Below, one piece after another: positions 43,396 to 63,388 of a stretch of DNA of 64,000 bases. How positions within the stretch are numbered: the first letter of the stretch is position 1; the number at the start of each line of letters is the position of its first letter. The position numbers and the translations under genes are program-made. The notes below the pieces were generated by a model. That model did no database searches, was not told the origin of the DNA, and saw nothing but the letters and a program-made list of their open reading frames with translations. The stretch is from Alphaproteobacteria bacterium (GTDB lineage Bacteria; Pseudomonadota; Alphaproteobacteria; JANSWW01): assembly GCA_024743275.1 (NCBI GenBank), contig JANSWW010000006.1, positions 1 to 64,000 of the forward strand, given 5' to 3'.

Positions 43396-43404
43396 AGTAC
43401 CCGC

Positions 43405-44787: not shown

Positions 44788-44941
44788 GGCATGTTCCTTT
44801 CGTGGCCCGGTTTGCCCTGAAACGTTCCCTTGCTGCGTTTCCCCATCCTGGTGCCGGGATTTCCTCCCGGTCGTTGGCGTTTTCATGTCCCAAAGGTCCC
44901 GCGATCCGCCTATCCGGGTCAACGGCAAGCCCCGGAAGGGG

Positions 44942-45978: not shown

Positions 45979-46818
45979 ATGTCCGCAGCCCCCTCCGCCC
46001 TGACGTCGGTCGCTCCGACAGCCTTCGCCTCGGCCCGGGCGACCGCCCATCTCGCCGTTCAACCGTTGAGCCTGGCGGCGCGGGCCAACCTGCCGTCGGC
46101 GACCGATGACAGGCATTCCAATCTTGGCTGGCGCGACGGAGCCTTCGTCTCCCAGCCGATTCCAGCCGGGGGGGCCATATATACGGTCTCACTCGCGGTC
46201 GAGCCCATGGCCCTGGCCCTGGAACGCGACGGGGTCGCGGTCGCGCGCAGCCCCCTGGACGGCCAGTCGCCGGCGGACGTTGCAGCATGGCTCGATGACA
46301 ATCTCACGGGGCATGGCCTGAAACCGACCGCCGGCATGGCGCCGCCCTATGACATGCCGGCGGACGTGGTCATGCTCGGCCGCTACCGGACCGATCCCGG
46401 GCTCGCCAGTCTGGCCGCTTGGTATGACCTGGCCCATGGCGTGCTCGATCGCTTCGCCGGCGACCATGGCGACCTCGAACCGGGACCGAGCCCGCTGCGC
46501 TGCTGGCCGCATCACTTCGATGTCGCCACGTATGTCGCGCTGGAAACCGGTGACCCGGAAACCGCCCGGGGCATCGGAGTCGGACTCTCGCCTGGCGACG
46601 AAAGCTATCCGCAGCCCTATCTCTACGTGAACCCATGGCCGATGCTGGACCCGGCCGGCCTCCCGGATCTCCCCGCGCCGGGCCATTGGCACACCGAGGG
46701 CTTCGTCGGCGCGGTCGCCACCGGGGAAGCGATTCTCGGCCTGGACGACCCCGCCGCGGGACTCGCCGCCTTCGTCGAGCAGGCCTTTGCCATCGGCCGG
46801 GCGCGCCTCGGCGTCTAA
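45979..46818 (+). CDS. DUF5996 family protein
   Basis: The 279-residue protein contains RCWPHHFDVATYVALE and YPQPYLYVNPWPMLDPAGLP, blocks I associate with DUF5996. No membrane segments or known catalytic motifs are seen. Conserved histidines and tryptophans (CWPHHFD, GHWHTEGF) could bind a metal or ligand. An AGGAACCCCC ribosome site is possible. It ends in a 4-base overlap with the multicopper oxidase gene from the other strand. Function unknown. Confidence 0.7.
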   Translation: MSAAPSALTSVAPTAFASARATAHLAVQPLSLAARANLPSATDDRHSNLGWRDGAFVSQPIPAGGAIYTVSLAVEPMALALERDGVAVARSPLDGQSPADVAAWLDDNLTGHGLKPTAGMAPPYDMPADVVMLGRYRTDPGLASLAAWYDLAHGVLDRFAGDHGDLEPGPSPLRCWPHHFDVATYVALETGDPETARGIGVGLSPGDESYPQPYLYVNPWPMLDPAGLPDLPAPGHWHTEGFVGAVATGEAILGLDDPAAGLAAFVEQAFAIGRARLGV

Positions 46819-48224
46819 CCCACCCTGAGCCAGGTCCGCATGCCGGCTTCGGCATGCTCCAGCATGTGGCAATGGAGCAGCCAGTCACCCGGGTTGTCGG
46901 CGTGGAAGAGGATCCTCGCCGTCTCGCGGGCCGCGACCAGGTCGGTGTCCCGCCAGGGACCGAGGCCGCCGTCCGGGCCGACCCGTTTGAAGTGATGTCC
47001 ATGGAGATGCATGGCGTGGGGCCACGCTGTCCGATTGACCATCGTGATTTCGACGGTCTCGCCCAGCCGAGCGTCGACCAGGGGGGCTTCCGGCATGTCG
47101 ACCGCCCCGTTGAAGGCCCAGACCTTGCCCCGCTGCGCCAACTCGCGGAGGTCATAGGTCCGCCCGTTCATCGTCGCCCGCCGCAGGCCGCCCATGGCCC
47201 CGCCCTCCATGGTCAGGGTCACCGACCGCGCGACGGCCCGCGGATCGACGGGCGGCAGGGGATTGGGCGGCAACGCCCCGGGGGCGGCGGACCGGACCGT
47301 GCGCGCGACACCGGATATCGGGAAGGTGGCGAGCGCGAACCGCTGATCGCCGTTGGTGCCCGCGACAAAGGCCTCCTCACCCTCCGCCCCGGTGACGTCG
47401 ACGATGACGTCGACCCGCTGCGCCGGACCGAGCACGATCCGGTCGGATTCCGCCGCCAGCGGCACCGGCGCTTCCAGGGGCTGGCCGTCGACGGCCACGG
47501 TCCAGCCGTCCAAACCTATCAGGGCCAGGGTGAGGATCCGGGCATTCGATGTGTTGACCAGGCGGAGCCGAAATCTCTCATGGCGGCGGGCCGGCACGGA
47601 GAGGTCGCCGTCCCCGTTGACCGTCGCCCAGTTGCCGAGCCGACCGCCATGGGCCCAGTCGTGCAGAGCCCCGAAGCTCTCGTCGACCTGCCACGCCTCG
47701 GTCAGGCGCCAATCGTCGATCAGCAGCATCTCGTCCCGGTCCACCTCCTGCGGCACGGCCTCCTCCACGATCAGCGGGCCGTAGAGACCGCGGGCCTGCT
47801 GCTCCCAGCTGCGGTTGTGCGGATGGTACCAATAGCTACCGGCGTCGGGGACGACGAAGTCGTAGAGGAAATCGGCGCCGGGCGCGACCACCGGCTGGGT
47901 CAGCCCCGGCACTCCGTCCATCGCGTTCTCGATGCGGATGCCGTGCCAGTGGACCGTCGAGGCCTGGGGTAGGTCGTTGACGAAGCGGCGGCGGACCCGC
48001 TCGCCCTGCTTCAGGCGGATCGCCGGGCCGGGAACCGCCCCGTCATAGCCCCAGATCGCCGTCTTCGCCGCGTCCTCGGGACCGATCCGCGCAAGCCCGG
48101 GGGCGGCCCGCAACACCGGGGCCGCTTCCGCGAAGACGGGACGCGGAACCATGGACAGCGTCGCGGGCAGGGCGGCGGCGCTCAAACCGCCCAACAGGAC
48201 GGACCGGCGGGTCAACCTCATCAT
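46815..48224 (-). CDS. Tat-exported multicopper oxidase
   Basis: The start at 48224 follows GAGGAAT and gives 469 residues. A Tat signal (LTRRSVLLGG) ends near VFAEA. All copper motifs occur: HWHG (92-95), HPH (134-136), HAMHLHGHH near 410, and HCHMLEHAEAGM near the C-terminus with a methionine axial ligand. It is a laccase/CueO-like three-domain oxidase folded in the cytoplasm and exported with copper. Copper tolerance, iron oxidation or phenol oxidation are possible. No copper-regulator gene is nearby. Confidence 0.9.
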   Translation of the reverse strand: MMRLTRRSVLLGGLSAAALPATLSMVPRPVFAEAAPVLRAAPGLARIGPEDAAKTAIWGYDGAVPGPAIRLKQGERVRRRFVNDLPQASTVHWHGIRIENAMDGVPGLTQPVVAPGADFLYDFVVPDAGSYWYHPHNRSWEQQARGLYGPLIVEEAVPQEVDRDEMLLIDDWRLTEAWQVDESFGALHDWAHGGRLGNWATVNGDGDLSVPARRHERFRLRLVNTSNARILTLALIGLDGWTVAVDGQPLEAPVPLAAESDRIVLGPAQRVDVIVDVTGAEGEEAFVAGTNGDQRFALATFPISGVARTVRSAAPGALPPNPLPPVDPRAVARSVTLTMEGGAMGGLRRATMNGRTYDLRELAQRGKVWAFNGAVDMPEAPLVDARLGETVEITMVNRTAWPHAMHLHGHHFKRVGPDGGLGPWRDTDLVAARETARILFHADNPGDWLLHCHMLEHAEAGMRTWLRVG

Positions 48225-48354
48225 ATTCCTCGTTCGGCCGGACATCCGGCACGGCATCGGTATGTTCCCTTTGAACCGTAGAGCCGCGGGCGAGGCATGC
48301 AAAGCTCTCAAAGGATGGTCGAAATGACGCCACCGGATCGGCCCGCCGAACGCG

Positions 48355-49488
48355 TCATTTCGTTTGGCGCGCCGTGGCCTCTCCGAAAATCCGCCCCGCT
48401 TCGGTCACCCGACGGTTCTGTTCCGCGTCGAGGAAATTCTGAAGCGGTGCCGGTCGCGCGAAATAAAAGCCCTGGAGATAGTCCACGCCCTTGTCGCGCA
48501 GCCAGGCGGCCTCCGCCTCGGTTTCGACGCCCTCGCCGATGGTGCGAATTCCATTGGCCTGGGCGATCTGAATCAGGTGCTCGACAATCGGCTGTTTGTA
48601 CTTATCGGTATCCACATCGCGGACGAGGTCCATGTCGACCTTGACGAAATCCGGTCGGAACTCGTGCAGCATGTTCAACCCGGACCAGCCCGACCCGATA
48701 TCGTCGATCGCGACGCCGAAACCGGCGGACCGATAGAAGGCGAGGATTCCCTTGAGATGGGCGAGGTCCTTCGCCCGGTGGGTCTCCGTCAACTCGAAGA
48801 CGATGTCGTTAGGCCTCATTCCCAGCGCGCCGATCGCAGCGGCCGTGGTGCGGAGGCAATAGGCAGGATCATAAATGCTCGACGGATTGAAATTGACGAA
48901 GATCTTCGATCGGGTCCGGGCCCGCGCGGCGGTTTCCACGGCGCTGCGCCGCGCGGCCAGATCGACGGAGAACAGCAGGTTGGCCTGGCCGACAATATCG
49001 AAGACTTGAGCCGGCGGAATAATCGTTCCGTCCTTATCCCGAAGCCTGAACAGACCTTCCATGGCAAAGGGATTGTCCGCGTCCGGTTTGGCGGCATGGA
49101 CGATCGGCTGATACCAGGTCTCGTAGCGCTCCTGATTGATCGCGTCCAAGATCCAACGATTCTTAAGTCGGCTGACAAGGACCTCCGCGGTGACCACACG
49201 TCCGAGCAGGTCAGGCCCGAAATCGCTGCCGGCCTCCGTGGCGACAATACGGGTCTCGGCCATTTCAGGCCCTTGCAAAGCGCCCCGCATCGCGGTGATG
49301 AAATCGTCGACGGCCTCTCGGGCGAGGGTGACCTTAACCCCCTTTTCACTGAATTGGGTCGCGTCAAAGCCCCGCGATCGGAACAAGGAGGTGGCCTTGC
49401 CGAAGGAATCCGCCGTCTGAAAGCTCATCCAAAACGTGGTTTGGTCGAAAATAAACTCATCGATCGCTTCACAGTCCTCGCAACGCAT
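48355..49488 (-). CDS. EAL-domain c-di-GMP phosphodiesterase-like protein
   Basis: The ATG at 49488 after CGGAGTTAGGG is preferred (377 residues). The first 125 residues start with a CEDC cysteine pair and form no known domain. The rest is an EAL domain: MEGLFRLRD (EAL reads EGL), NFNPSS, FELTETH, IDDIGSGWSG, FVKVDMDLV and GEGVE. The metal and catalytic acids look intact, so it may degrade c-di-GMP. The CxxC start may sense redox or metal. Confidence 0.85.
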   Translation of the reverse strand: MRCEDCEAIDEFIFDQTTFWMSFQTADSFGKATSLFRSRGFDATQFSEKGVKVTLAREAVDDFITAMRGALQGPEMAETRIVATEAGSDFGPDLLGRVVTAEVLVSRLKNRWILDAINQERYETWYQPIVHAAKPDADNPFAMEGLFRLRDKDGTIIPPAQVFDIVGQANLLFSVDLAARRSAVETAARARTRSKIFVNFNPSSIYDPAYCLRTTAAAIGALGMRPNDIVFELTETHRAKDLAHLKGILAFYRSAGFGVAIDDIGSGWSGLNMLHEFRPDFVKVDMDLVRDVDTDKYKQPIVEHLIQIAQANGIRTIGEGVETEAEAAWLRDKGVDYLQGFYFARPAPLQNFLDAEQNRRVTEAGRIFGEATARQTK

Positions 49489-49930
49489 CCCTAACTCCGA
49501 GTTCAACGTATCGTCGCAACCTTACGCCCGTTTGCGCGCGGAAGATCATTCATTTCAAAAAAATTCCGAGGGGTGCCCAGGCAAAACACGCCACCAAGGG
49601 ATCACCATAGAATCAAATGGTTTCCGAATGATTAATTCGTATATTACTGAAGTCGAATGCACCAAAAAATATCAAACCATGGAAAATAAAACAGTGCTTA
49701 TCGCCCTTCGTTTAGGAGTGGTCTACTCTTCAGTCCGGAAGCCTTACTCTTTCTTGAAAAGAACAAAACCGGGAGCGATTTGTAACAAATAATCCACCTT
49801 TCCTGTTTGATTGACGCATAGTTTCGCGCTAACACATGCTCCTGACCGAACGGCTGGAACACAGAATTCCACGGATCGATAACGCCGGCGGACGAAACGA
49901 CCGATAACAACGATCATTAGGGAGAGATAC
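49489..49930. promoter_or_regulatory. AT-rich 442-bp intergenic region upstream of TRAP operon 1
   Basis: No gene was found here. The DNA is much more AT-rich than its neighbours, especially 49550-49700. A TGATTGACG sequence near 49809 and a GGGAGAG ribosome site before the ATG at 49931 suggest that a TRAP promoter lies in the last 130 bases. Exact promoter boxes are not clear. The AT-rich part may bind nucleoid proteins or be a relic of transfer. Confidence 0.45.
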
Positions 49931-51058
49931 ATGTCCGAGAAAGTCGAGAAGGCGGGGCTTGAGCAGGCTTCCCGCCGGCGGTTCTTCAAGGTCGGTGCCG
50001 CGACCGTCGCCGGCGCGACCGCCGCGGTCGCAGCGCCGAACATCGCCCGCGCCCAGACGAAAACGCTGAAGGTTCAGGCGGCCTGGGGCGGCGGGATTTT
50101 CCTTGAGAACGCCAAGGCCTATGTCGACCGCGTCCACGCCATGGCCGGCAAGGACCTCAAGATCGACCTGCTCGCCGTGAACGCCGTCGTGAAGACAAGC
50201 CAGATGCAGGACGCCGTGCACCGTGGCGTGCTGGACGGCTGCCACTATGTTCCGGCCTATTGGTACTCGAAGTCGAAGAGCGCCTCCCTGTTCGGGACGG
50301 GTCCGTGCTTCGGCTGGTCGAGCCAGGAAGTGCTCGGCTGGGTCCACTATGGCGGTGGTATGGAGCTCTTCAACGAGCTTATGGACTCGCTCGGCCTCAA
50401 CGTGGTCAGCTTCTTCAACAGCCCGATGCCGGCCCAGCCGATGGGTTGGTTCAAGGAAGAGATCAAAGACGCCTCGCAGATGAACGGCCTGAAATACCGG
50501 ACCGTCGGTCTGGCGGCCGACGTGCTGCTCGAAATGGGCATGTCCGTGGTTCAGCTTCCGGGCGGCGAAATCCAGCCGGCCATGAAGTCCGGCCTGATCG
50601 ACGCGGCGGAGTTCAACAACCCGACCTCCGACCGTGACTTCGGCATGCAGGACGTCTCGAAGCACTATCACCTGGCCAGCTTCCACCAGTCCCAGGAATT
50701 CTTCGAGATCTCCTTCAACAAGCGGATGTTCGAGAGCCTGCCGGAAGAGCATAAGGCGATCCTGAAATACGCCTCCGAGGCCGAGAACTCGAACTTCTAC
50801 TGGCACAACACCAAGCGCTATGCGGAAGACCTGACCAAGCTGCGCGACGAGCAGGGCGTCAACGTCTACCGTACGCCGGATTCGGTGATGGCCGAGCAGC
50901 TCAAGGCCTGGGACGTCGTGGTCGAGCGGATCGCGGCCGAGGACGAGTTCTTCGCCAAGGTCATCGCCAGCCAGAAGGCGTATGCCAAAGAGGTGATGAA
51001 CTACCTCAATCTGAATCAGCCGGACTACAAGCTGGCCTACAACCACTATTTCGGCTGA
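49931..51058 (+). CDS. TRAP transporter binding protein, Tat-exported (TakP-like), system 1
   Basis: A twin-arginine signal (SRRRFFKVGAATVAGATA) ends near ARAQ. The mature part of the 375-residue protein follows the DctP/TakP order: VQAAWGGGIFLENAKAYVDR, VVKTSQMQDAVHRGVLDG, KYRTVGLAADVLLEMGMSVV, LPGGEIQPAMKSGLIDAAEF. TakP-type proteins bind 2-oxo acids or other carboxylates with sodium-driven uptake. A GGGAGAG site precedes the ATG. Membrane subunits follow after a hairpin. Confidence 0.9.
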   Translation: MSEKVEKAGLEQASRRRFFKVGAATVAGATAAVAAPNIARAQTKTLKVQAAWGGGIFLENAKAYVDRVHAMAGKDLKIDLLAVNAVVKTSQMQDAVHRGVLDGCHYVPAYWYSKSKSASLFGTGPCFGWSSQEVLGWVHYGGGMELFNELMDSLGLNVVSFFNSPMPAQPMGWFKEEIKDASQMNGLKYRTVGLAADVLLEMGMSVVQLPGGEIQPAMKSGLIDAAEFNNPTSDRDFGMQDVSKHYHLASFHQSQEFFEISFNKRMFESLPEEHKAILKYASEAENSNFYWHNTKRYAEDLTKLRDEQGVNVYRTPDSVMAEQLKAWDVVVERIAAEDEFFAKVIASQKAYAKEVMNYLNLNQPDYKLAYNHYFG

Positions 51059-51078
51059 TCGCTCTAATCGTTCGGGGC

Positions 51079-51111
51079 GGACGCCGGACCGGTCTTCCCG
51101 GTTCGGCGTCC
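51079..51111 (+). terminator. hairpin between TRAP binding-protein and small-subunit genes, system 1
   Basis: Arms 51079-51092 and 51098-51111 pair over 14 bases (GGACGCCG with CGGCGTCC outermost, one G-U) around a 5-base loop, 21 bases after the stop codon. No strong U-run follows. It likely stabilises the binding-protein mRNA end or attenuates read-through, so binding protein exceeds membrane subunits. Confidence 0.65.
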
Positions 51112-51170
51112 GTGCCGTTTTCGGCGTTTAGAAAAGACCGTTTTCGTTTCCCGGCTTATTGGGGGCTCCC

Positions 51171-51758
51171 GTGGCAACCTGGATCATCCACTCGATCGAA
51201 AATCTCAGCATTTGGGTCGGACGCGCCTTTGGATGGTGCATCCTGATCCTCACCTTTTCGGTGTCCTACGAGGTTTTCGTCCGCTACGTGCTGAACGCAC
51301 CGACCGTCTGGGCCTTCGATATGATGGTTCAGATGTATGGCGCGCTGTTCCTGATGGCCGGTCCCTACGCGCTCGCCCAGGACGTCCACGTCCGAAGCGA
51401 CGTCATCTACCGCCTGCTGCCGATCCGCTGGCAGGCCGGAATCGATTTCTTCCTCTACATCACCTTCTTCTTCCCCGGCATGTTGGCCCTGTTCTGGTTC
51501 GGCGCCGAGATCGCATCCGACTCCTGGCGCTATCAGGAAGTCAGCTGGAACAGCCCGGCCCGTATCCAGGTCTACTTCTTCAAGACCCTGATTCCGGTCG
51601 CCGGCGTTTTGATGATCATCCAGGGAATAGCGGAGTGCATGCGCTGTTGGCTCGCCTTCCGCAACCAGGCCTGGCCGGAACGGGTCGAGGATGTGATGGA
51701 GACCGAACAGCAGCTCATCAAGGGCAGCATGATGCCCGGAGAAGGCCAGCCGCGCTGA
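51171..51758 (+). CDS. TRAP transporter small membrane subunit (DctQ type), system 1
   Basis: A GTG at 51171 with GGGGG upstream is preferred (195 residues). Four membrane helices are visible (SIWVGRAFGWCILILTF, MVQMYGALFLMAGPYAL, FFLYITFFFPGMLALFW, LIPVAGVLMIIQGIAE), the DctQ arrangement, with the characteristic VHVRSDVIY loop. It pairs with the large subunit to form the membrane part of the importer. Confidence 0.88.
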   Translation: MATWIIHSIENLSIWVGRAFGWCILILTFSVSYEVFVRYVLNAPTVWAFDMMVQMYGALFLMAGPYALAQDVHVRSDVIYRLLPIRWQAGIDFFLYITFFFPGMLALFWFGAEIASDSWRYQEVSWNSPARIQVYFFKTLIPVAGVLMIIQGIAECMRCWLAFRNQAWPERVEDVMETEQQLIKGSMMPGEGQPR

Positions 51759-51824
51759 TCCCCATCGGCGCGGGCCCTTCCCACCGAAATCGCGAAAAGT
51801 TCCTGAGACCGAAAGTCTAGAGCC

Positions 51825-53192
51825 ATGACCAATCCCGAAGTCGCCATCTTGATGCTGTCGCTGTTCATCGTCTTGGTGCTGCTGGGCTTCCCCGTCGCCT
51901 TCACGCTGCTCGCCATGGGCGTCGCCTTCGGCTTCTACGCCTATCACGACGCCGGTTCGATCCAGGAAGTCGCCGATGTCCTCAACAACCGGATCTTCTA
52001 CCTCCTGAACCAGAACACCTACTCGGTGATGGAGAACGACACGCTGGTCGCTATCCCGCTCTTCCTCTTCATGGGCTATGTGGTCGAACGAGCGAACATC
52101 GTGAACCGGTTGTTCGAATCGCTGCAATTGGCGGCGCGGAACCTGCCGGGATCCATGGCGATCGCGGCCCTGATCACCTGTGCCGTGTTCTCGACGGCGA
52201 GCGGCATCGTCGGCGCCGTGGTGACCTTGATGGGCCTGCTGGCGTTCCCGGCCATGGCCAGGGCGAGTTACAACAAGTCCTTCGCCTCCGGTGTGATCTG
52301 CGCGGGCGGCACACTCGGCATTCTGATCCCGCCGTCGATCATGCTGATCGTCTACGCGGCGATCGCCGAGCTTTCCCCGCTTCGGCTCTATGCGGCGGCC
52401 GTCTTCCCCGGCCTGCTCCTCGCCGGGCTCTACATCGTCTATGTGTTGATCCGCGTCGGGATCAATCCGTCCATCGCGCCCAATCCGAAGAAGGACCCGA
52501 GCATCACGCCCGGCCAGATCTATCTCGACTTGCTGGTCTCCTTCGTGCCGCTGACGATCCTGATCATGCTGGTGCTGGGCTCCATTCTCGGCGGCCTCGC
52601 CACCCCGGCGGAGGCGGCGGCCATGGGGGCGTTGGGCGGTATCGTGCTGGCAGCCCTCTACCGCTCGTTGACCTGGCAGAAGATCAAGGAATCGGTCTTC
52701 CTGACCGCCAAGGCGACGGCGATGGTCTGCTGGCTGTTCGTCGGGTCGTGGACCTTCGCGTCGGTGTTCTCCTATCTCGGCGGCCACGACGTCATCGCCA
52801 ACTGGGTCGTCGCGCTCGACCTCGAGACCTGGCAGTTCCTGCTGCTGTGTCAGGCGATCATCTTCCTGCTCGGCTGGCCGTTGGAGTGGTCGGAGATCCT
52901 GATCATCTTCGTGCCGATCTTCCTGCCGATGCTGGTCCTGTTCGACGTGAACCCGTATTTCTTCGCCATGCTGGTCGCGCTCAATCTGCAGACCTCGTTC
53001 CTGACTCCACCTATGGCCATGTCGGCCTACTACCTGAAGGGGGTGTTGAAGAACCAGATCGAGCTCATGGACATCTTCAGGGGGATCATGCCCTATCTCG
53101 GCATCGTGATCTTCGCCATGGTCATGATGTACCAGTTCCCGGGCATTGCCCTGTGGCTCCCTGATCACCTGTTCGGTCCCTATGTCCCCTGA
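51825..53192 (+). CDS. TRAP transporter large permease (DctM type), system 1
   Basis: The 455-residue protein has about 12 membrane helices and the DctM signatures FPVAFTLLAMGVAFGFYAY, TASGIVGAVVTLMG, LGILIPPSIMLIVYAAIAE, GGLATPAEAAAMGALGG and NLQTSFLTPPMAMSAYYLKG. This subunit translocates the carboxylate with sodium. Its stop overlaps the start of the amidase gene, so uptake and hydrolysis appear co-expressed. Confidence 0.92.
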   Translation: MTNPEVAILMLSLFIVLVLLGFPVAFTLLAMGVAFGFYAYHDAGSIQEVADVLNNRIFYLLNQNTYSVMENDTLVAIPLFLFMGYVVERANIVNRLFESLQLAARNLPGSMAIAALITCAVFSTASGIVGAVVTLMGLLAFPAMARASYNKSFASGVICAGGTLGILIPPSIMLIVYAAIAELSPLRLYAAAVFPGLLLAGLYIVYVLIRVGINPSIAPNPKKDPSITPGQIYLDLLVSFVPLTILIMLVLGSILGGLATPAEAAAMGALGGIVLAALYRSLTWQKIKESVFLTAKATAMVCWLFVGSWTFASVFSYLGGHDVIANWVVALDLETWQFLLLCQAIIFLLGWPLEWSEILIIFVPIFLPMLVLFDVNPYFFAMLVALNLQTSFLTPPMAMSAYYLKGVLKNQIELMDIFRGIMPYLGIVIFAMVMMYQFPGIALWLPDHLFGPYVP

Positions 53193-54552
53193 TCAGCCCA
53201 TGACGGACCCGCTGCGGACGCCCTGGCTGCTTTCGGCCACCGAGCTTTCCGACGTCCTCCGGGACGGACGGATAAGCTCGGTCGCGGTGACCAAGGCCTG
53301 CCTGGCGCGGATCGCCGAGAACGACCCGGAGGTCGGCGCCTGGGCCCATGTGGACGAGGACACCGCCCTGGCTCAGGCGGAGGCGGCCGACCAGCGCCGC
53401 TTCAAGGGGAAGCCGCTCGGCGCGCTCCATGGCCTCCCTGTCGGGATCAAGGATATCTTCGACGTCCGCGGGATGCCCACGGGGCTCGGCTCGACCGATC
53501 CGTCGACGGAACCGGCGAAGGCGGATTCCGCCGTTGCCGAGAAGCTTCGGGCGGCCGGCGCGGTGATCATCGGCAAGACGACCACCTCCCCCTTCGCATC
53601 CGGGGCCAACACCACAGCCCGCAACCCGCATGATCCCACCCGCACGCCCGGCGGCTCGTCCAGTGGATCGGCCGCGGCTGTCGCCGCTGGGCATGTTCCG
53701 CTGTCCGTCGGCAGCCAGACCAACGGTTCCGTGGTACGGCCCGCCTCCTATTGCGGGGTCTACGGGTTCAAGCCGTCCCGGGGCATGGTCTCCCGCCATG
53801 GCTGTCTCAAGACCAGCGAGACCCTGGATCAAGTCGGTGTTTTCGCCCGCAGCCTGGAAGACACCGCCCTGCTGACCGGGGCCCTGATGGGCTATGACAG
53901 AGCGGACCCGGCGATGAACTGCGTCCCGTTGCCCGATCCCGTCGCCGGCGTGGCGGAGGCCCCCGGCGTCGATCCGATGTTCGCCTGGTTCGACCTGCCC
54001 TATTGGGACCGGGTCGAGGCGTCGGCGCGCGACGCCTTGGAGGCGGTTCTGGAGGCCCTGGGCGACCGGGTCGAACGGCATCCGGCCCCGAAGACCTTCC
54101 AGGATGTGATCGACAGCCATCGCGCGGTGCACCAGTTCGAGTATCACCGCAATATGAGCGGCCATCCGGCGTTGCCCGACGCCTTGATCCCGAACGATCT
54201 GCGGCCCTTCCTGGATGCGGGGAGCAAGGTTTCCGAGGACGACTATCGGGCGGCCCTCGCCCTGCTGGCCGGGGCGGAGACCTTTTTCGACGCCTTCTTC
54301 ATGGATTTCGACGCTATTCTGGCGCCGGCCAGTCTCGGCGTGGCGCCGGTCCACGCGGCCGGGACGGGGGATCCGATCTGCCAGACGGTCTGGACCTTCG
54401 CAGGACTGCCGTCCCTGGGCCTGCCGTGGCTCTCCGGCGACCAAGGCCTGCCGCTCGGTGTGCAGGCGATCAGCGCGCGCGGCGAGGACGACCGGCTGAT
54501 GCGGACGGCGAAATGGCTTGAAACGACGCTTGGCGCCGATGACGCGGCTTGA
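53182..54552 (+). CDS. amidase-signature hydrolase
   Basis: The ATG at 53182 overlaps the DctM stop; an ATG at 53200 is also possible. The Lys-Ser-Ser catalytic set is visible: the lysine in LPVGIKDIFD, the serine of GSQTNGSVVRPASYCG and the GGSSSGSAAAVAAG glycine-serine loop. Amidase-signature enzymes release ammonia or amines from amides. Being coupled to a carboxylate TRAP importer, it may deaminate an imported amide or act on a downstream amide. It resembles GatA but has no GatB/C neighbours. Confidence 0.9.
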   Translation: MSPDQPMTDPLRTPWLLSATELSDVLRDGRISSVAVTKACLARIAENDPEVGAWAHVDEDTALAQAEAADQRRFKGKPLGALHGLPVGIKDIFDVRGMPTGLGSTDPSTEPAKADSAVAEKLRAAGAVIIGKTTTSPFASGANTTARNPHDPTRTPGGSSSGSAAAVAAGHVPLSVGSQTNGSVVRPASYCGVYGFKPSRGMVSRHGCLKTSETLDQVGVFARSLEDTALLTGALMGYDRADPAMNCVPLPDPVAGVAEAPGVDPMFAWFDLPYWDRVEASARDALEAVLEALGDRVERHPAPKTFQDVIDSHRAVHQFEYHRNMSGHPALPDALIPNDLRPFLDAGSKVSEDDYRAALALLAGAETFFDAFFMDFDAILAPASLGVAPVHAAGTGDPICQTVWTFAGLPSLGLPWLSGDQGLPLGVQAISARGEDDRLMRTAKWLETTLGADDAA

Positions 54553-54590
54553 ACGGAAAATCGATCGATAGTGATCGGGAGGATCGACAA

Positions 54591-54788
54591 ATGGTTAAAA
54601 AGATCTGCGCAGTTCTGGGAACCCTGACCCTGGCGACCTTCATCATCGGTCTCGCCCAGAGCATCACTTCCGGGTTCGCCGGCTTTTGGGGTGGCCTGCC
54701 CTTCTGGATCATCGCCATCGTGGTTCTTTCCATGGCGGCCTACGACGCCTGGGAAGAAACCTTTGCCCGCAAGAAAAACGGGGCCTGA
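54591..54788 (+). CDS. small two-helix membrane protein (65 aa)
   Basis: The ATG at 54591 follows GGGAGGATCGACAA. Two membrane helices are clear (ICAVLGTLTLATFIIGLA and GGLPFWIIAIVVLSMAA) and the tail is basic (ARKKNGA). No family was recognised. Its stop is three bases before the dehydrogenase GTG, so it is part of the operon. It may be an accessory of the TRAP system or unrelated. Confidence 0.7.
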   Translation: MVKKICAVLGTLTLATFIIGLAQSITSGFAGFWGGLPFWIIAIVVLSMAAYDAWEETFARKKNGA

Positions 54789-54791
54789 TCC

Positions 54792-55754
54792 GTGTCCAAA
54801 CCGACCGTCTGGATCACTCGGAAGCTGACCGAGGCCACATTGGAGCGCGCGCGGTCCCGCTATGAGGTGATCGACAATCCGAGCGACGGGACCTTCACCG
54901 TCGACGAGATCGTCGAGATGAGCCGCAAGGTCGACGCGATCCTTCCCTGTCACTCGGAGATCTTCAACGCGGACGTGGTCGCCCGCCTCGATCCGCGCCT
55001 GAAGATCATCGCCAACCATTCGGTCGGGGTGGACCACTGCAACCTGCCGGCGCTCAAAGAGCGCGGCATCGTCGTCACCAACACGCCGGACGTGCTGTCC
55101 GACGCCACGGCGGAGATCGCGATCCTGTTGATGCTGGGTGCCGCGCGGCGCGCCGGCGAGGGCGAAAGACTGATCCGGTCCGGAAACTGGAAGGATTGGA
55201 GCCCGGCCTTCATGGTCGGCGTCCAGACCACGGGCAAGCGTTTCGGCGTCCTCGGCATGGGGCGGGTCGGTCAGGCGACGGCGCGCAAGGCGCGCGGCTT
55301 CGGGATGGAAATTCACTATCACAACCGTCGGCCGGTCGCAGACGAGATCGCCGAGGGCGCGGTCTATCACGATAGCGTCGAGGGTTTGCTGCGGCACTCG
55401 GACGTCCTGTCGATCCATTGCCCCGCGACCGAATCGACCCGGGGCATCATCAACGCGGCAACCCTGGCCCATCTGCCGGATAACGCGATTCTGGTGAACA
55501 CGGCCCGGGGCGCCATCGTCAATGACGACGATCTGATCGCGGCCCTCAAGGCGGGCAAGCCGTGGGCCGCCGGGCTGGACGTGTTCAACGACGAGCCGGC
55601 GATCCACCCGGGCTATATGGCCCTCGATAACGTCTTCATGCTGCCGCATATCGGCAGCGCCACCCGGGAAACACGGGATGCCATGGGGGCCAGGGCGCTC
55701 GACAATCTCGATGCCTTTTTCGATGGCCGGGAGCCGGTAGACCGGCTCGTCTAG
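54792..55754 (+). CDS. D-isomer-specific 2-hydroxyacid dehydrogenase (glyoxylate reductase-like)
   Basis: A GTG three bases after the upstream stop starts the 320-residue protein. The NAD-binding motif GVLGMGRVGQATA, catalytic arginine in VNTARGAIV, glutamate in DVFNDEPAIH and histidine in LPHIGSATRET are all present. It interconverts 2-oxo and D-2-hydroxy acids. Together with the 2-oxo/hydroxy-acid-type TRAP importers on both sides it suggests processing of an imported 2-hydroxy or 2-oxo acid. Confidence 0.9.
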   Translation: MSKPTVWITRKLTEATLERARSRYEVIDNPSDGTFTVDEIVEMSRKVDAILPCHSEIFNADVVARLDPRLKIIANHSVGVDHCNLPALKERGIVVTNTPDVLSDATAEIAILLMLGAARRAGEGERLIRSGNWKDWSPAFMVGVQTTGKRFGVLGMGRVGQATARKARGFGMEIHYHNRRPVADEIAEGAVYHDSVEGLLRHSDVLSIHCPATESTRGIINAATLAHLPDNAILVNTARGAIVNDDDLIAALKAGKPWAAGLDVFNDEPAIHPGYMALDNVFMLPHIGSATRETRDAMGARALDNLDAFFDGREPVDRLV

Positions 55755-55998
55755 CCCCGGAAGCCCCCCTGATGGATTTTCCGGTTTCCGGGAAATAACG
55801 CAAAATCAAGAAATAAAATTTTAAGGTCCAGCAATTTTTGGACCTTGTCTGCCTGCGTGCCCTCCATTACCGTTTTTCGCGTTTCGGAGAAAACCAGAAA
55901 GGCCGGAGAACCGGTCCCCCTTCTCCGACGGTCCATTCTCATGGACCCAGCGGGCGCCCGATGGCGCCCATAAACGGAACATGCTTAGGGAGGCACAA

Positions 55999-57048
<1,050 letters not shown>

Positions 57049-57121
57049 AGCGGGTCGCTATGACAGGGGCGGGGGTCTCTCGACCCACGCCCGGACCCGC
57101 GTAGAGTGCGGACTATGATCG

Positions 57122-57152
57122 CCGGGGTCTCTCCTTGCCGGAGGGACCCCGG
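57122..57152 (+). terminator. hairpin between TRAP binding-protein and small-subunit genes, system 2
   Basis: Arms 57122-57134 and 57140-57152 pair over 13 bases (CCGGGGTC with GACCCCGG outermost, one G-U) around a TTGCC loop. It lies 73 bases after the binding-protein stop, with no strong U-run. It mirrors the hairpin of system 1 and may set the same expression ratio. Confidence 0.65.
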
Positions 57153-57173
57153 TGTTCGACACCCGTCAACCGG

Positions 57174-57728
57174 ATGCATATCGCCATGTCATTCCTTTTG
57201 AAGATCAGCACGCTCCTCGACGCCATCGTCACGGCGGTCGGGCGGGTCGGCGCCTGGTGCGGCCTCATTCTGATCCTGGTCACCTGCTACGATGTCTTCA
57301 CCCGCTATCTGCTCGATCTCGGATCGACCAAGCTGCAGGACTTCGAATGGTGGCTCCACACCATGCTGTTCTCGACGGCGCTCGGGTGGACCTATCTCAG
57401 GGACGGCCATGTCCGGATCGACCTGCTACGGGACCGGATGGCGCCGAAGACCAAGACCGTGATCGAATTGATCGGGATCGTCTTCTTCCTGTTCCCTTAT
57501 TGCTTCATCATTCTGCCGGACACCTATGATTTCTTCCTCAGATCCTATGAGCAGAACGAGGCGTCGAAATCGGCGACCGGGTTGGACAATGTCTATCTGG
57601 TCAAGTTCTTCCTGCCCTTCGGCTATACCCTGCTGACGCTTGCCGCGATCGCCGTCTTCTTCCGCCGGCTGGTCGATTTGATCGCCCCGGATCTCGCGGC
57701 GACCCATCGCGCGGACGCGCAAGGGTGA
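57174..57728 (+). CDS. TRAP transporter small membrane subunit (DctQ type), system 2
   Basis: Two starts are possible, ATG at 57174 (184 residues) or at 57186. Four membrane helices occur (VGAWCGLILILVTCYDVFT, LHTMLFSTALGWTYL, IGIVFFLFPYCFIIL, FFLPFGYTLLTLAAIAVFF) with the GHVRIDLLRDRM loop common in DctQ proteins. It forms the membrane part with the DctM protein 17 bases downstream. Confidence 0.87.
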   Translation: MHIAMSFLLKISTLLDAIVTAVGRVGAWCGLILILVTCYDVFTRYLLDLGSTKLQDFEWWLHTMLFSTALGWTYLRDGHVRIDLLRDRMAPKTKTVIELIGIVFFLFPYCFIILPDTYDFFLRSYEQNEASKSATGLDNVYLVKFFLPFGYTLLTLAAIAVFFRRLVDLIAPDLAATHRADAQG

Positions 57729-57745
57729 GAAGAGGATAACAAGAA

Positions 57746-59116
57746 ATGGATTTCGAGGCGCTTCTCCCCCTCCTGATGTTCGCCGCCCTGGGCATTCTTC
57801 TGTTCAGCGGCTTTCCCGTCGCCTTCATCCTCGGCGGTGTGGCCATCGGCTTTGGCTATATCGCCTATTGGTATGACGACTTCCTGTTCGAACCGCTGAT
57901 GTTCTTCAACGTCGTCTCACGGATTTGGGGCGGTGTCGCCGAAAGCCCGATCCTGACCGCGATCCCGATGTTCATCTTCATGGGAACCATGCTGGAGAGA
58001 TCGGGAGTGGCCTCGGATCTGCTGCACGCACTGCAGGTTCTGCTGCGCCGGGTGCCGGGCGGTCTTGCCATGTCCGTCACGCTGATGGGCACCATCATGG
58101 CCGCGACCACGGGAATCATCGGCGCCTCTGTGGTGATGATGACCCTGCTGGCCCTGCCGGTGATGCTGGAGCGTCGATATCACCCTGCACTGGCCTGCGG
58201 CACCATCGCCGCATCGGGTACCCTCGGCATTCTCATTCCGCCGTCGATCATGCTGGTGATCATGGCGGACCTGTTGGCGAAGTCGGTCGGCAATCTGTTC
58301 GTCGCCGCCGTCGTGCCCGGCTTCATGCTGTCGGTCCTCTACCTTCTCTATATCTATTTTTTCTCCCATCTCCGGCCCGACTGGGCCCCGCCCCTGCCCG
58401 ACGACGAAGGTCCGCAGGACACCCGCGAGATCATGAAGATGGTGCTGAAGAGCTTCCTGCCGCCGATCTTCCTGATCGTCCTGGTCTTGGGCTCGATCCT
58501 GGGCGGGATCGCGACGCCGACGGAGGCGGCCGGTGTCGGCGGCCTCGGCGCGCTCTTGCTGGCGCTGATCAACGGCAAGCTCAAATTCCACGTCTTGAGG
58601 GACGTGATCGAACGGGCGGCGCTGACCGGCGGCATGCTGTTCATGATCTTCCTCGGCGCCACCGCCTTCGCCTATGTGTTCCGGGCGCTGGGGGGCGACG
58701 ATATCGTGGTCGATATCGTCGAGGGCCTGGGCTTCGGCTCCTGGGGTGTGTTGATCGTCCTTTTGACCATCGTCTTCCTGCTGGGCTTCTTTTTCGATTG
58801 GCTGGAGATCACCTTGATCGTGATTCCGGTCTTCACGCCGGTAATCGAGCTTCTGGACTTCGGCGACCATGTGCCGAAGGCGGATATCGTCTATTGGTTC
58901 GCCATCCTGATGGCGGTGAACCTGCAGACCTCGTTCCTCACCCCACCCTTCGGGTTCGCGCTGTTCTACATGAAGGGCGTGGCCCCGCCCGAGGTGAAGA
59001 TCAACCATATCTATACGGGCATCGTTCCCTTCGTCTGCCTGCAGCTCGTGGCCCTCGGCCTGGTCGTCGCGTTCCCGAATCTCGCGCTCTGGCTGCCCAA
59101 CACGCTGCTGAACTAG
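57746..59116 (+). CDS. TRAP transporter large permease (DctM type), system 2
   Basis: The 456-residue protein has about 12 membrane helices and DctM blocks FPVAFILGGVAIGFGYIAY, TTGIIGASVVMMTLLALP, GTLGILIPPSIMLVIM, GGIATPTEAAGVGGLG and NLQTSFLTPPFGFALFYMKG. It is paralogous to the system 1 permease but clearly diverged. It ends the operon; a strong terminator hairpin follows 26 bases later. Confidence 0.92.
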   Translation: MDFEALLPLLMFAALGILLFSGFPVAFILGGVAIGFGYIAYWYDDFLFEPLMFFNVVSRIWGGVAESPILTAIPMFIFMGTMLERSGVASDLLHALQVLLRRVPGGLAMSVTLMGTIMAATTGIIGASVVMMTLLALPVMLERRYHPALACGTIAASGTLGILIPPSIMLVIMADLLAKSVGNLFVAAVVPGFMLSVLYLLYIYFFSHLRPDWAPPLPDDEGPQDTREIMKMVLKSFLPPIFLIVLVLGSILGGIATPTEAAGVGGLGALLLALINGKLKFHVLRDVIERAALTGGMLFMIFLGATAFAYVFRALGGDDIVVDIVEGLGFGSWGVLIVLLTIVFLLGFFFDWLEITLIVIPVFTPVIELLDFGDHVPKADIVYWFAILMAVNLQTSFLTPPFGFALFYMKGVAPPEVKINHIYTGIVPFVCLQLVALGLVVAFPNLALWLPNTLLN

Positions 59117-60326: not shown

Positions 60327-60806
60327 TTAAACGGCCTGCAGCGCTGAAAGCCCCGCATCCCGGGCGGCCGTGATCGCGGCGCTGTCGGCCGCCGCCGCGA
60401 TCTGGATCTTCGCCCCGCGCCGGGCGGCGTCGATCTGCCCTTCGAGCGCCATCCAGGCGTCGGCCTGGGCGACGATGACGGCGGCGACCGAGGCCAGGTC
60501 CGGCAGCACATCCCCGGTCACCGGGTCGACCTCGACGCCGATCAGAGGCTCCAGCAGGGCCGACGATGCCGCCCCGGCCAGCACCCGCCGGGCCTCCGCC
60601 TCCTTGGCGAGATAACTCATGGCCTGCCCCGCCCCCGGGGTGACGATCGCCGCGCGGGCGGCCTCGGCCGCCGCGTCGATCTCGCGCTCCGCTTCGGCCT
60701 TCTCCCGATCCAGGGCGCCGGCCGCCACCGCCGCGATCCGCGCCGATTCGGCATCGATCTCGGCCTGGTCCAGATCGATCCAGGCGCCGTTTTCCCGACG
60801 TCTCAT
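60327..60806 (-). CDS. phage tail-fibre assembly chaperone-like protein (159 aa)
   Basis: The protein begins [20 protein letters not shown] and is almost entirely alanine-rich helix ([20 protein letters not shown] and [20 protein letters not shown]). It resembles by composition and position the chaperone or DUF4376-like genes after phage fibre genes. It overlaps the fibre-gene stop by 4 bases. The family label is tentative. Confidence 0.55.
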
Positions 60807-62092
60807 ATCGCAACTCCCATGAGAATGAACCGCCCCGCCGCGATGCTGCCGTTGTTCATCGTGAACCGCAGCGACGACAAGGTCTGCCCGCCGCTGTCGA
60901 CCCGGCCGGTGTTGAGAAAGGTGCGTTGGCGATGGCTGCCATGGGACCGCATGTCGAGATATCCGGACGCCGGCGCGCCGAGATGGATGGTGAACTGCGC
61001 CGGCGTGGTGGTGTCGGAGATATCGGCCGCGTTCAGCCTGAAATGGGTGGTGGTGAAACTCGACCCGGTCACGCTCGACCCGAGAAACGCGGTCATCCCG
61101 TTCTCGTACAAGCTCGCCGTGATCCCATTGATGTGGAGATGGAACTCCGCCCCGGCCGACACCGGCCGAAGGCCGAAGACGTGGGCGATGTAGCCGCCAT
61201 ATTTTGGATCGGCGAAGTTGGAAAACGCAACCTCCGTCGCTGGCGACGCGACGGTGTCAGTGGCCAAAACATGCAGCGCCAACCGGGCCTCGATCGCCTG
61301 GGCGGTCCGCAGAGCCGTCATTAGCGCGGCGTGGTCGGTCCCGGCCTCTGCCTCGATCTGGGAGGCGCGGACCAACGACAACTCCTCGGCCCCGTCGGCC
61401 GCGACCTTGACGATGCCCGATCCGTCGCGGAACAGCCCGGTGGCCGGGTCGCCGGTGAACGCCAGCGACGGTGCGGCGGCGGACCCGTCGAGCAGGGTGC
61501 CAACCGCGCCCATCGGACCCTGCGGCCCTTCCGGCCCCGCCACGCCCTGGGTGCCCTGCGGTCCTTGCGGGCCGTCCGGCCCCGGCACCCCCTGCGGTCC
61601 CGCCTCCCCCTGGATCCCCTGCGGCCCGGGTGGCCCGTCCGGCCCTTCCGGTCCGACCGCACCGGTCGTGCCGGGCCGGCCGGGGACGATGACCCAGTCG
61701 GACGCCGCCCCGCCGCGATACCAGGACGCCACCGCCGGCACGCTCACGGTGAGCGTCGTGCCCGCGTAGCCCGACACCGGCCCGGCGAAATAGGTCCCGT
61801 CCGGATCGGCCGCCGAATAGGCGATGACCAGCGCCCCCGCCTGAAAACCCTTGCCGGCCTCGATCTCCAAGACCAGCGCGCCCGCCGCCGGGGTTACGGC
61901 GGTCGAGGACGTCGCCTGGATCGACGACGCGACCCCGGCGACGCGGGCATCGATCTCCTTCAGCCCGGCCACCCACATCGCCTGAAATCGGGGATAGGCG
62001 ACCCCGTCGACCGAGACCGGCGTGGTGTGACCCAGGCCGGCGAAATCGCTGTCTGCGAACGGCATACTGGAAAGCGTGACTGTGGTGGTCAT
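60803..62092 (-). CDS. phage tail fibre-like protein with collagen-like repeats
   Basis: The 429-residue protein has a helical N-terminal third, then about 20 Gly-x-y triplets ([19 protein letters not shown] and following) at about residues 138-200, then a beta-rich C-terminal receptor-type domain. Gly-x-y runs form rigid triple-helical shafts in phage fibres. The protein should trimerise and bind a host surface. It is coupled to the upstream tail gene (4-base overlap). Confidence 0.8.
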
Positions 62093-62976
62093 CCGATAAC
62101 CTCACGAATGTTGAAGGCTATTTCGAACAGACCCGCGCGCGCCGCCCGCAGGGGACTGAGACGGGTCAGACGCCCCGGAAAGGTCCATCTCTGGAGATGG
62201 AAGGGGTTTCCCGGGTCCCAGGAGAAAACCACCTGATCCGAGATCCCGCCGCGCTGAATCGTATCGAACAGCTTGGCCATGGCCTCGTCGGTCGGGATGT
62301 TGGCAAGTTGGACGATCGCCTCGCGCCGGCGTGGCCGGACGTCGAAATACTCGACACCGGACCGGGTTTCGAAGACGGTGGTCCTGTCTTGAACGGCAAG
62401 CGCCGAACCCAACTGCCAATTCACCGTCGGCTGGAAGCCGCTGGCGAGGTAGACGCGGCTGATTTCGACGTATCCGTCCGGATTGTCCGTATCGTCTATC
62501 GCCAGTTTCCAATATCGGCCGATAACCCGTTCCTTGAAGATCTTGAGAACCGGTACCGGGACCTTGTCGGTGTTCTCCTCGACCTCGCGTCCGTGGAAGA
62601 AGTGCTCGTCCTCGAACTCGCTGCTGCCGATCGGGTAGATCTGCGGGAACACCTCAATCCGGTGGGGTCCGGACAAAACGGGGCCGATATCATCGCCGTG
62701 CCTGTCGTTGGACACGGTCAAGACGACTTTCGCCGAAAGGGAGAGATTGTGGCCGATGAGCGCGAAGCCGCGGATCGCCCGGACCGTCCCGAGATCGATC
62801 ACCCCCCAGCAATCGCCTTTGGTGGCATTCACCGAACGCGCCCTTTCGGCGAACCGTGGCTGAAGCACATTGGTCAGCGGCATGGCCGGCCGCCAATTTC
62901 CCCCGAAGGCGGACACTTCCGCGAAGGCGGGATCGGCATCGACCATGTTGGGAAACAGCAGGACCCCGTTCGACAT
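62089..62976 (-). CDS. phage tail/baseplate-associated protein (295 aa)
   Basis: The ATG at 62976 follows GGGGATTGAG and is two bases after the upstream stop; an ATG at 62988 is possible. The sequence has a discoidin-like look: [71 protein letters not shown]. Such jelly-roll domains in phage tails bind sugars. It is between a small tail gene and the fibre gene. Confidence 0.65.
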
Positions 62977-62977
62977 C

Positions 62978-63385
62978 TCAATCCCCATGGGTCTTGATCT
63001 CGACGGTCATCAAGGTCCCGGGATTCCATGTCCCGACGGTCGTGTATTTGACCCGGAAGGCACTTCCCAGAATGCCCTCCTGGACCGTGTTTTCGGCGAG
63101 GCCGCCCTCGCTCAGGACGGTGGGCGCGGGAATGGACTTTCGCCCGTCGACCGTCACGAAGCGTGTTCCGCCGCCGGAGACGGCGAAACAGGCGATATCG
63201 CTCCAGGTCTTTTGCCCGTCGATCGAGGTCTGGACCCAGGCGGTCACGGAGGTACCGCCACCCGAGGTCGTCAGGGCGAACTGGACCGTCGCTCCGCCCG
63301 GCGAGCCAAACCCGCTTTGGACCGCGACGATTTGGGCCGTAACCGGATTGGTGATGTTCTCGGCCGCTAAAACTGCTACCGCCAT
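62978..63385 (-). CDS. phage tail hypothetical protein (135 aa)
   Basis: The protein is beta-rich (TAQIVAVQSGFGSPGGATVQ, then TSIDGQKTWSDIACFAVSGG and VKYTTVGTWNPGTLMTVEIK), similar in style to small immunoglobulin-like tail decoration proteins. No family was recognised. It lies three bases after the tail-tip gene and one base before the next gene, so it is in the tail operon. Confidence 0.6.
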   Translation of the reverse strand: MAVAVLAAENITNPVTAQIVAVQSGFGSPGGATVQFALTTSGGGTSVTAWVQTSIDGQKTWSDIACFAVSGGGTRFVTVDGRKSIPAPTVLSEGGLAENTVQEGILGSAFRVKYTTVGTWNPGTLMTVEIKTHGD

Positions 63386-63388
63386 GGC

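What the first reader, a model, noticed from the sequence alone, without database searches (positions are those of the whole stretch)
49931..59116. Two diverged TRAP importers bracketing an amidase and a D-2-hydroxyacid dehydrogenase
The order is TRAP 1, amidase, small membrane protein, dehydrogenase, TRAP 2. The DctM stop overlaps the amidase start. One binding protein uses Tat, the other Sec. This suggests a module that brings in two related acids or an amide/acid pair, hydrolyses the amide and oxidises or reduces the 2-hydroxy acid. I know no described pathway with this layout.
Basis: partly seen in the sequence, partly recalled or inferred. Interest (0 to 1): 0.52.

Follow-up and report, generated by a model that had tools for sequence, protein, structure and literature searches.

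The report
Conserved marine acid-import and amidase module
A set of genes that probably imports a small hydroxy- or keto-acid, splits an amide and reduces or oxidises the acid is conserved across marine bacteria including SAR11, but the second transporter next to it here is an unrelated neighbour; what it imports is still unknown.

Summary
In detail: TRAP 1 (49931-53192), amidase, small membrane protein, D-2-hydroxyacid dehydrogenase, TRAP 2 (55981-59116), all on the + strand. The grouping is half right. TRAP 1, amidase, small two-helix membrane protein (SMP) and dehydrogenase form a conserved module: the amidase follows TRAP 1 in 62 of 62 named loci with enough flank, from Roseobacters, SAR116 and SAR11 to Gammaproteobacteria; SMP follows the amidase in 56 of 59; the dehydrogenase is beside the module in 40 of 51. 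TRAP 2 is in none of 80, and none of its own 20 fetched neighbourhoods holds TRAP 1 or the dehydrogenase. In SAR11 the module continues an aminotransferase-glcDEF run. The TRAP 1 receptor keeps the carboxylate/cation site of keto-acid receptor TakP; the amidase has the malonamidase E2 motif that seven genomic paralogues lack. Best reading: a 2-hydroxy/2-oxo acid importer with a dedicated amidase. Three loci keep a catalytically dead amidase, unexplained. The ligand is untested. I found no description in print, but a key SAR11 receptor paper was not held.

The parts
49931..51058 (+). DctP1, Tat-exported solute receptor of TRAP 1 (TakP-like)
   Evidence: Pfam DctP 6.2e-25; TakP-type site residues Y110, Q169, R190, E227 kept in 120 of 120 relatives; model nearest to keto-acid and lactate TRAP receptors
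51159..51758 (+). DctQ1, small permease of TRAP 1 (start codon uncertain)
   Evidence: Pfam DctQ 1.6e-21
51825..53192 (+). DctM1, large permease of TRAP 1
   Evidence: Pfam DctM 4.5e-74; 260.6 bits against the TIGR00786 cut-off of 268.45
53182..54552 (+). amidase-signature hydrolase of malonamidase E2 type (ATG 53182 or 53200)
   Evidence: Pfam Amidase 2.7e-84; best PDB match malonamidase E2; catalytic Lys90, Ser159, Ser183 plus Arg186
54591..54788 (+). SMP: 65-aa membrane protein with two hydrophobic segments, no Pfam family
   Evidence: an equivalent follows the amidase in 56 of 59 named loci and precedes it in the other 3
54792..55754 (+). D-2-hydroxyacid dehydrogenase, glyoxylate/hydroxypyruvate reductase-like, probably NADP(H)-linked
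   Evidence: Pfam; nearest PDB 4g2n, 1gdh; catalytic R239, E268, H286 in 54 of 54
55981..57048 (+). DctP2, receptor of TRAP 2 (neighbour, not part of the module)
   Evidence: Pfam DctP 3.9e-36; nearest PDB TakP/SmoM 3e-67; absent from 80 named and 40 class module loci
57135..57728 (+). DctQ2 of TRAP 2 (neighbour)
   Evidence: Pfam DctQ 7.2e-20
57746..59116 (+). DctM2 of TRAP 2 (neighbour)
   Evidence: Pfam DctM 4.2e-69

Best explanation
TRAP 1, the amidase, the small membrane protein and the dehydrogenase form a conserved uptake-and-use module for a small 2-hydroxy- or 2-oxo-monocarboxylic acid. DctP1 is exported by Tat and should bind the acid through Arg190 and Tyr110 together with a metal cation held by Gln169, Glu227 and Gln253. 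DctQ1/DctM1 bring it in, and the two-helix SMP is most likely an accessory part of that transporter. Inside, the malonamidase-like amidase removes ammonia from an amide that carries a free carboxylate; the simplest case is an amide of the imported acid, such as 2-hydroxysuccinamate or a malonamate-type compound. The dehydrogenase interconverts the 2-oxo and D-2-hydroxy forms. In SAR11 the product is passed to glycolate oxidase encoded just upstream. TRAP 2 is a separate 2-oxo-acid importer that happens to lie next door. Shown: gene families, conservation, gene order, site residues. Inferred: ligand class, direction, role of SMP. Guessed: the amide.
For: Synteny: amidase in 62 of 62 named loci with at least 4.6 kb from the DctP1 start; dehydrogenase downstream in 22, upstream in 18, elsewhere in 1 and absent in 10 of 51; DctP2 in 0 of 80. 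An independent class sample gives the amidase in 12 of 12 informative loci with DctP1 at 56% identity or more. SMP: 56 of 59 after the amidase against 6 of 52 in a control after the dehydrogenase. SAR11-type loci: an aminotransferase and glcD upstream in 11 of 11 with enough flank, glcE and glcF also in 10 of 11 (families), and an FMN-dependent 2-hydroxyacid dehydrogenase further upstream. DctP1 keeps TakP's Tyr100, Gln156, Arg177, Glu214 in 120 of 120 relatives (roles from PMC1839085). Its model ranks keto-acid and lactate receptors first, Z 31-36. Arg186 aligns with malonamidase Arg158 and is kept in 61 of 64 module amidases, while 7 of 7 genomic paralogues have the GatA-type motif.
Against: The pocket residues special to DctP1 (Asn229, Asn230, His252, Glu256) are the same in 24 amidase-linked and 13 unlinked receptors, so the pocket does not point to an amide. 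Three of 64 module amidases (L149, L150, L152) have lost all catalytic residues beside an almost unchanged transporter. The amidase diverges much faster than the transporter: 54.7% against 80.7% mean identity in 366 pairs. The dehydrogenase is not beside the module in 11 of 51 loci, being absent within the fetched flank in 10. The glcDEF loci are one lineage, so that adjacency is one event, not eleven.
Confidence: 0.6

Rival explanations
1. TRAP 1 is simply a glycolate/lactate-type 2-hydroxyacid importer. The amidase works on something else, for instance recovering nitrogen from intracellular amides, and is only co-regulated.
For: SAR11 run with glcDEF and FMN-dependent dehydrogenases. A published passage calls SAR11_0274 a glycolate transport gene, with glcDEF in the same strain (PMC6775983). 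Unlinked DctP1 relatives share the same pocket.
Against: The amidase is never missing next to close DctP1 relatives, 62 of 62, even in genomes of 1.2 Mb. DctP1 has a Glu (E256) and two Asn where TakP has Pro, Val and Gly, which suits a polar ligand better than glycolate.
Confidence: 0.25
2. The first reader's module: two TRAP importers for two related acids, or an amide/acid pair, sharing the two enzymes between them.
For: Adjacency in the window; both receptors keep the 2-oxo-acid site with different cation ligands (DctP2 has Glu160 for TakP Gln156). One other genome has a related amidase upstream of a TRAP 2 relative (L096).
Against: DctP2 relatives in 0 of 80 and 0 of 40 module loci; 20 of 20 fetched TRAP 2 neighbourhoods without TRAP 1 or the dehydrogenase. 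Genomes with both receptors keep them apart (for example G130, both on one contig about 1.2 Mb apart).
Confidence: 0.07
3. SMP and the amidase-fold protein are physical parts of the transporter, with catalysis secondary or lost.
For: SMP in practically all module loci and after DctM1 without any amidase in L068, L070, L071. Dead but intact amidase beside a conserved transporter, L150/L152 dN 0.049, dS 0.211, and a confident amidase fold in the L150 model.
Against: 61 of 64 amidases keep the full catalytic set. The dead ones are three metagenome-assembled Rhodobacteraceae genomes, possibly one lineage. L068, L070 and L071 are one genus. dS is saturated in the L149 pairs.
Confidence: 0.12

Closest known systems
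TakP (SmoM) keto-acid TRAP receptor of Rhodobacter sphaeroides and relatives (2hzk/2hzl, 4pet, 7ug8; lactate receptor 2zzv)
   Same: Fold, carboxylate Arg and Tyr, cation ligands Gln and Glu (site from PMC1839085)
   Different: Glu240 is Gln253, Pro243 is Glu256, Val216-Gly217 are Asn-Asn in DctP1; TakP is not described with an amidase or SMP in the passages seen
Malonamidase E2 (1ock and mutants)
   Same: Amidase-signature catalytic set and the Arg158 equivalent, Ser-x-x-Arg-Pro
   Different: Genomic partners and substrate; no ligand tested for the window enzyme
Glyoxylate/hydroxypyruvate reductases and D-glycerate dehydrogenase (1gdh, 4g2n)
   Same: Domain pair and catalytic Arg, Glu, His
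   Different: Below the NCBI cut-off for glyoxylate reductase (271.5 of 455 bits); substrate unknown
SAR11 glycolate oxidase genes with a suggested glycolate transport gene (SAR11_0274 in PMC6775983)
   Same: glcDEF with a transporter, glycolate as the suggested ligand
   Different: The passages seen mention no amidase, SMP or dehydrogenase; I could not check that SAR11_0274 is the same transporter
Omega-amidase route of 2-oxosuccinamate/2-hydroxysuccinamate (PMC5485471)
   Same: An amidase and a 2-hydroxyacid dehydrogenase acting on one acid-amide
   Different: That amidase (Nit2) is nitrilase-like, not an amidase-signature enzyme, and no importer is involved

Membership tests
DctPQM TRAP transporter (TRAP 1 and TRAP 2) | DctP, DctQ and DctM genes together | tested here: met
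   Pfam matches over gathering scores for all six
TakP-type keto-acid receptor (DctP1) | Carboxylate Arg/Tyr and cation ligands Gln156, Glu214 | tested here: met
   Tyr110, Gln169, Arg190, Glu227 in 120 of 120
TakP-type keto-acid receptor (DctP1) | Cation ligand Glu240 | tested here: not met
   Gln253 in 120 of 120; it could still ligate, but is uncharged
TakP-type keto-acid receptor (DctP1) | Binds 2-oxo acids; helix-swapped dimer | not testable with these tools
   needs protein
Amidase signature family (window amidase) | Ser-cisSer-Lys triad and amidase family match | tested here: met
   Lys90, GGSSSG 157-162, Ser183; Pfam 284 bits
Malonamidase E2 type | Arg158 equivalent three residues after the nucleophile | tested here: met
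   Arg186; 61 of 64 module amidases, 0 of 7 genomic paralogues
Malonamidase E2 type | Hydrolyses malonamate | not testable with these tools
   needs assay
D-2-hydroxyacid dehydrogenase | NAD(P)-binding and catalytic domains, Arg-Glu-His | tested here: met
Glyoxylate reductase (NCBI equivalog PRK13243) | Score over the curated cut-off | tested here: not met
   271.5 of 455 bits
One module with two TRAP importers | TRAP 2 conserved with TRAP 1 and the enzymes | tested here: not met
   0 of 80 and 0 of 40; 0 of 20 the other way
Glycolate oxidase GlcDEF in SAR11-type loci | Score over NCBI cut-offs | tested here: inconclusive
   GlcF over the cut-off (442 of 333), GlcD and GlcE just under it (540 of 567.9; 258 of 284)

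The most novel reading that the evidence does not exclude
TRAP 1 is a TRAP transporter with a dedicated fourth membrane part (the two-helix SMP) and a cytoplasmic amidase-fold partner docked on it, so that import and deamidation of an acid-amide are coupled at the membrane. In one lineage the amidase has become a pure structural partner.
Probability: 0.12. Interest if true: 0.72.

Novelty: new variant of a known kind. Interest (0 to 1): 0.5.

Why it matters
Many marine TRAP importers have no known ligand. This module is present in Roseobacters, SAR116, SAR11 and Gammaproteobacteria, so its ligand is likely a common part of dissolved organic matter, perhaps organic nitrogen in amide form. The tight gene set gives a small list of ligands and enzyme assays. 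A conserved fourth small membrane protein would change the picture of what a TRAP transporter consists of.

Tried and rejected
Two-TRAP module: rejected by synteny. Pocket as evidence for an amide: looked for and not found, because linked and unlinked receptors share it. A terminator between dehydrogenase and TRAP 2: the scan found 9 sites in the region against 8.0 expected, and the hairpin at 55823-55846 is scored for the other strand only, so nothing can be said. An aminotransferase route from asparagine (2-oxosuccinamate) is kept as a guess only; the aminotransferase is near the module mainly in SAR11-type loci. D-pantothenate was considered as an amide of a D-2-hydroxyacid (from memory) and not pursued: no support either way. 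Other recurrent neighbours in the class loci (M81 peptidase with Opp permeases in L068/L070/L071; a Mem_trans protein in L073/L074/L077) gave no common theme. A first gene caller by longest ORF was unusable in high-GC DNA and was replaced by a codon-scored one. In one search, n is 62 of 80 for the amidase and 51 of 80 for the dehydrogenase, because the other loci lack flank; rows dropped for this are not evidence of absence. Means leave out L149, L150, L152 and include a dehydrogenase pair at 23% that is probably a wrong paralogue. Literature: three searches with TRAP transporter and amidase plus 2-hydroxyacid dehydrogenase or SAR11 gave 0, 0 and 1 paper; a search with glycolate oxidase, TRAP transporter and amidase gave one paper with all three terms, on P. 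aeruginosa aggregation (listing only). The claim that the module is undescribed rests on these searches only, and the main paper on SAR11 receptor ligands was not held.
Full report
What is in the window. Intergenic gaps, from the coordinates: DctP1-DctQ1 100 nt, DctQ1-DctM1 66 nt, DctM1-amidase overlapping by 11 nt or separated by 7 nt depending on the start, amidase-SMP 38 nt, SMP-dehydrogenase 3 nt, dehydrogenase-DctP2 226 nt. The overlap holds only for the ATG at 53182; the ATG at 53200 is as likely. DctP1 has a Tat motif conserved in 9 of 9 aligned sequences; DctP2 has a Sec-type signal (sequence; my reading).

Synteny of TRAP 1. A search of 385 genomes of the class found DctP1 relatives at E 1e-50 or better in 64. 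I fetched 40 neighbourhoods. Of 37 with enough flank, 24 have the amidase right after DctM1 on the same strand: 12 of 12 when DctP1 is at least 56% identical, 11 of 19 at 50-56%, 1 of 6 below that; 8 of 37 have the dehydrogenase. A scan of one genome per species found at least 580 relatives and kept the best 80: Rhodobacteraceae, Hoeflea, Sneathiella, SAR116, Pelagibacteraceae, and Gammaproteobacteria such as Granulosicoccus and the Solemya velum symbiont. Among these 80, 62 have at least 4.6 kb after the DctP1 start, and 62 of 62 have the amidase there; of 51 with flank on both sides the dehydrogenase is downstream in 22, upstream in 18, elsewhere in 1 and missing in 10. The 80 are the best matches, so they are biased to close relatives; the class sample is the fairer measure.

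Synteny of TRAP 2. DctP2 relatives at 40% identity or more occur in 0 of the 80 and 0 of the 40 loci. Searched on its own, DctP2 has relatives at E 1e-80 or better in 65 of 385 genomes; I fetched 20 neighbourhoods. None contains TRAP 1 or the dehydrogenase; an amidase 45% identical to the window's lies upstream in one (L096), and weaker amidase matches (29-35%) lie near three others (L103, L106, L109). Where both receptors occur in one genome they lie apart in the cases I looked at (G130, G235, G266, G334). TRAP 2 is therefore a neighbour and not part of the module. Other TRAP genes, not orthologous to TRAP 2, lie within reach of the module in a few of the 80 loci (L126, L132, L142, L158, L160).

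The small membrane protein. An ORF of 45-115 aa with at least one strongly hydrophobic segment starts within 330 nt after the amidase in 56 of 59 loci with enough flank, with two such segments in 51 of them; the same test after the dehydrogenase gives 6 of 52. In the three without (L132, L137, L147) an SMP lies between DctM1 and the amidase. In the class sample it is found in 22 of 24 amidase-linked loci, and also after DctM1 in 3 of 11 unlinked loci (L068, L070, L071, which come from one genus). SMP thus seems to travel with the transporter rather than with the amidase, which is the basis for my guess that it is a transporter part.

SAR11. In SAR11-type loci (Pelagibacteraceae, Fonsibacter and one unnamed alphaproteobacterial single cell, L184) with enough upstream flank, an aminotransferase and glcD lie upstream in 11 of 11, and glcE and glcF also in 10 of 11. 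In the three loci where I measured gaps (L186, L189, L051) the glc genes are 2-15 nt apart or overlap, and the dehydrogenase follows glcF by 4 or 6 nt in two and 465 nt in one. Family names come: GlcF is over its NCBI cut-off, GlcD and GlcE just under theirs. One or two FMN-dependent 2-hydroxyacid dehydrogenases lie further upstream in many of them. The unnamed 1.2 Mb genomes L051, L052 and L055 show the same kind of run. In six Rhodobacteraceae-type loci (L120, L121, L123, L148, L162, L166) a gene of the 2-hydroxy-3-oxopropionate reductase/3-hydroxyisobutyrate dehydrogenase family follows the dehydrogenase on the same strand (families). All these partners but the aminotransferase are enzymes of hydroxy- and oxo-acids. 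They suggest the ligand class but not the ligand.

Receptor site. TakP binds pyruvate by Arg177 and Tyr100 and a cation by Gln156, Glu214, Glu240 and the Trp215 carbonyl (PMC1839085, passages). On an alignment of 120 DctP1 relatives and 20 DctP2 relatives, DctP1 keeps Tyr, Gln, Arg and Glu214 in 120 of 120, with Gln for Glu240; DctP2 relatives have Glu for Gln156 and Gln for Glu240 in 20 of 20. So both sites keep a carboxylate clamp and a cation shell, but of different make-up. DctP1 also has invariant Asn229, Asn230, His252 and Glu256 at places where TakP has Val, Gly, Trp and Pro, which fits a polar ligand. The same residues occur in 13 receptors without the amidase next door, so they are not a mark of the amide. 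The AlphaFold model of DctP1 (mean pLDDT 78.7) is nearest to 4yzz, 2hzk, 4pet, 7ug8, 5cm6 and the lactate receptor 2zzv (Z 36.3 to 32.5, rmsd 2.4-2.7 over 312-332 residues).

Amidase. The nearest solved structure by sequence is malonamidase E2. Its Lys62, Ser131, Ser155 and Arg158 (residue numbers from mutant entry titles; the role of Arg158 in holding the substrate carboxylate is recalled) align with Lys90, Ser159, Ser183 and Arg186. In 64 module amidases including the window's, 61 keep this set. The seven other amidases of this genome found at E 1e-15 or better all have the GatA-type Ser-x-Arg motif instead. The amidase diverges faster than the transporter: in 366 locus pairs with DctP1 at 75% or more, mean identities are DctP1 80.7, DctM1 83.8, amidase 54.7, dehydrogenase 63.3.

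Dead amidases. In L149, L150 and L152 (metagenome-assembled Rhodobacteraceae) the gene in the amidase position has lost Lys, both Ser and Arg, with deletions around them, yet is an open frame of 405-410 codons that still matches the Pfam Amidase model. L150 and L152 differ by dN 0.049 and dS 0.211 (ratio about 0.23; for DctP1 0.008 and 0.21), which suggests it is still under selection (a simple estimate, no test). The L150 model (pLDDT 82.9, pTM 0.87) matches amidase-signature structures (Z up to 33.3). These loci have the SMP-like gene but no dehydrogenase. I cannot explain this by a purely catalytic role.

Dehydrogenase. Catalytic Arg239, Glu268 and His286 are kept in 54 of 54; the residue pair after the second strand is Asn-Arg (Asn in 51, Arg in 54 of 54), which by a rule I recall means NADP(H). 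It is nearest to 4g2n and 1gdh, the latter named D-glycerate dehydrogenase, and below the NCBI cut-off for glyoxylate reductase. The own genome has further members of the family, the nearest 44% identical, and its own glcD-like gene on another contig.

What is known. Searches for TRAP transporter plus amidase plus 2-hydroxyacid dehydrogenase found no paper; with SAR11 instead, one paper with single mentions (listing only). One paper states that HTCC1062 can transport glycolate by SAR11_0274 and oxidise it by glcDEF (PMC6775983, passage); another lists SAR11_0273 and SAR11_0274 as carbohydrate transport genes (PMC2217521, passage). It is likely, but unchecked, that these belong to the SAR11 form of TRAP 1. 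The Nature 2024 study of SAR11 receptors is not held (only its reference line seen) and may already name a ligand. The omega-amidase route for 2-oxosuccinamate and 2-hydroxysuccinamate (PMC5485471, passages) is the chemical model for an amidase and a dehydrogenase acting on one acid-amide.

Verdict. All protein families but SMP are known; the combination, the SMP and the dead amidase variant are, as far as I could search, not described. Ligand and mechanism remain inferred.

Noticed in passing
L149, L150, L152 (about 11.1-12.4 kb in each): Amidase homologues without any catalytic residue, intact frame, beside a nearly unchanged TRAP 1.
   Followed up: yes
SAR11-type loci such as L186, L189: Upstream of the module: FMN-dependent 2-hydroxyacid dehydrogenase(s), aminotransferase and glcDEF, in tight order.
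   Followed up: partly
L120, L121, L123, L148, L162, L166: A 2-hydroxy-3-oxopropionate reductase/3-hydroxyisobutyrate dehydrogenase-family gene follows the dehydrogenase on the same strand.
   Followed up: partly
   Followed up: no
window 42163-45757, - strand: Acetate kinase, a MaoC domain fused to phosphate acetyl/butyryltransferase, and an enoyl-ACP reductase-like gene in a row.
   Followed up: no
window 46818-49506, - strand: Multicopper oxidase and an EAL-domain protein just upstream of the module on the other strand.
   Followed up: no
window 60330-64000, - strand: A run of genes on the - strand that looks phage-tail-like, including a 428-aa protein with a collagen repeat (the phage-like reading is mine and untested).
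   Followed up: no
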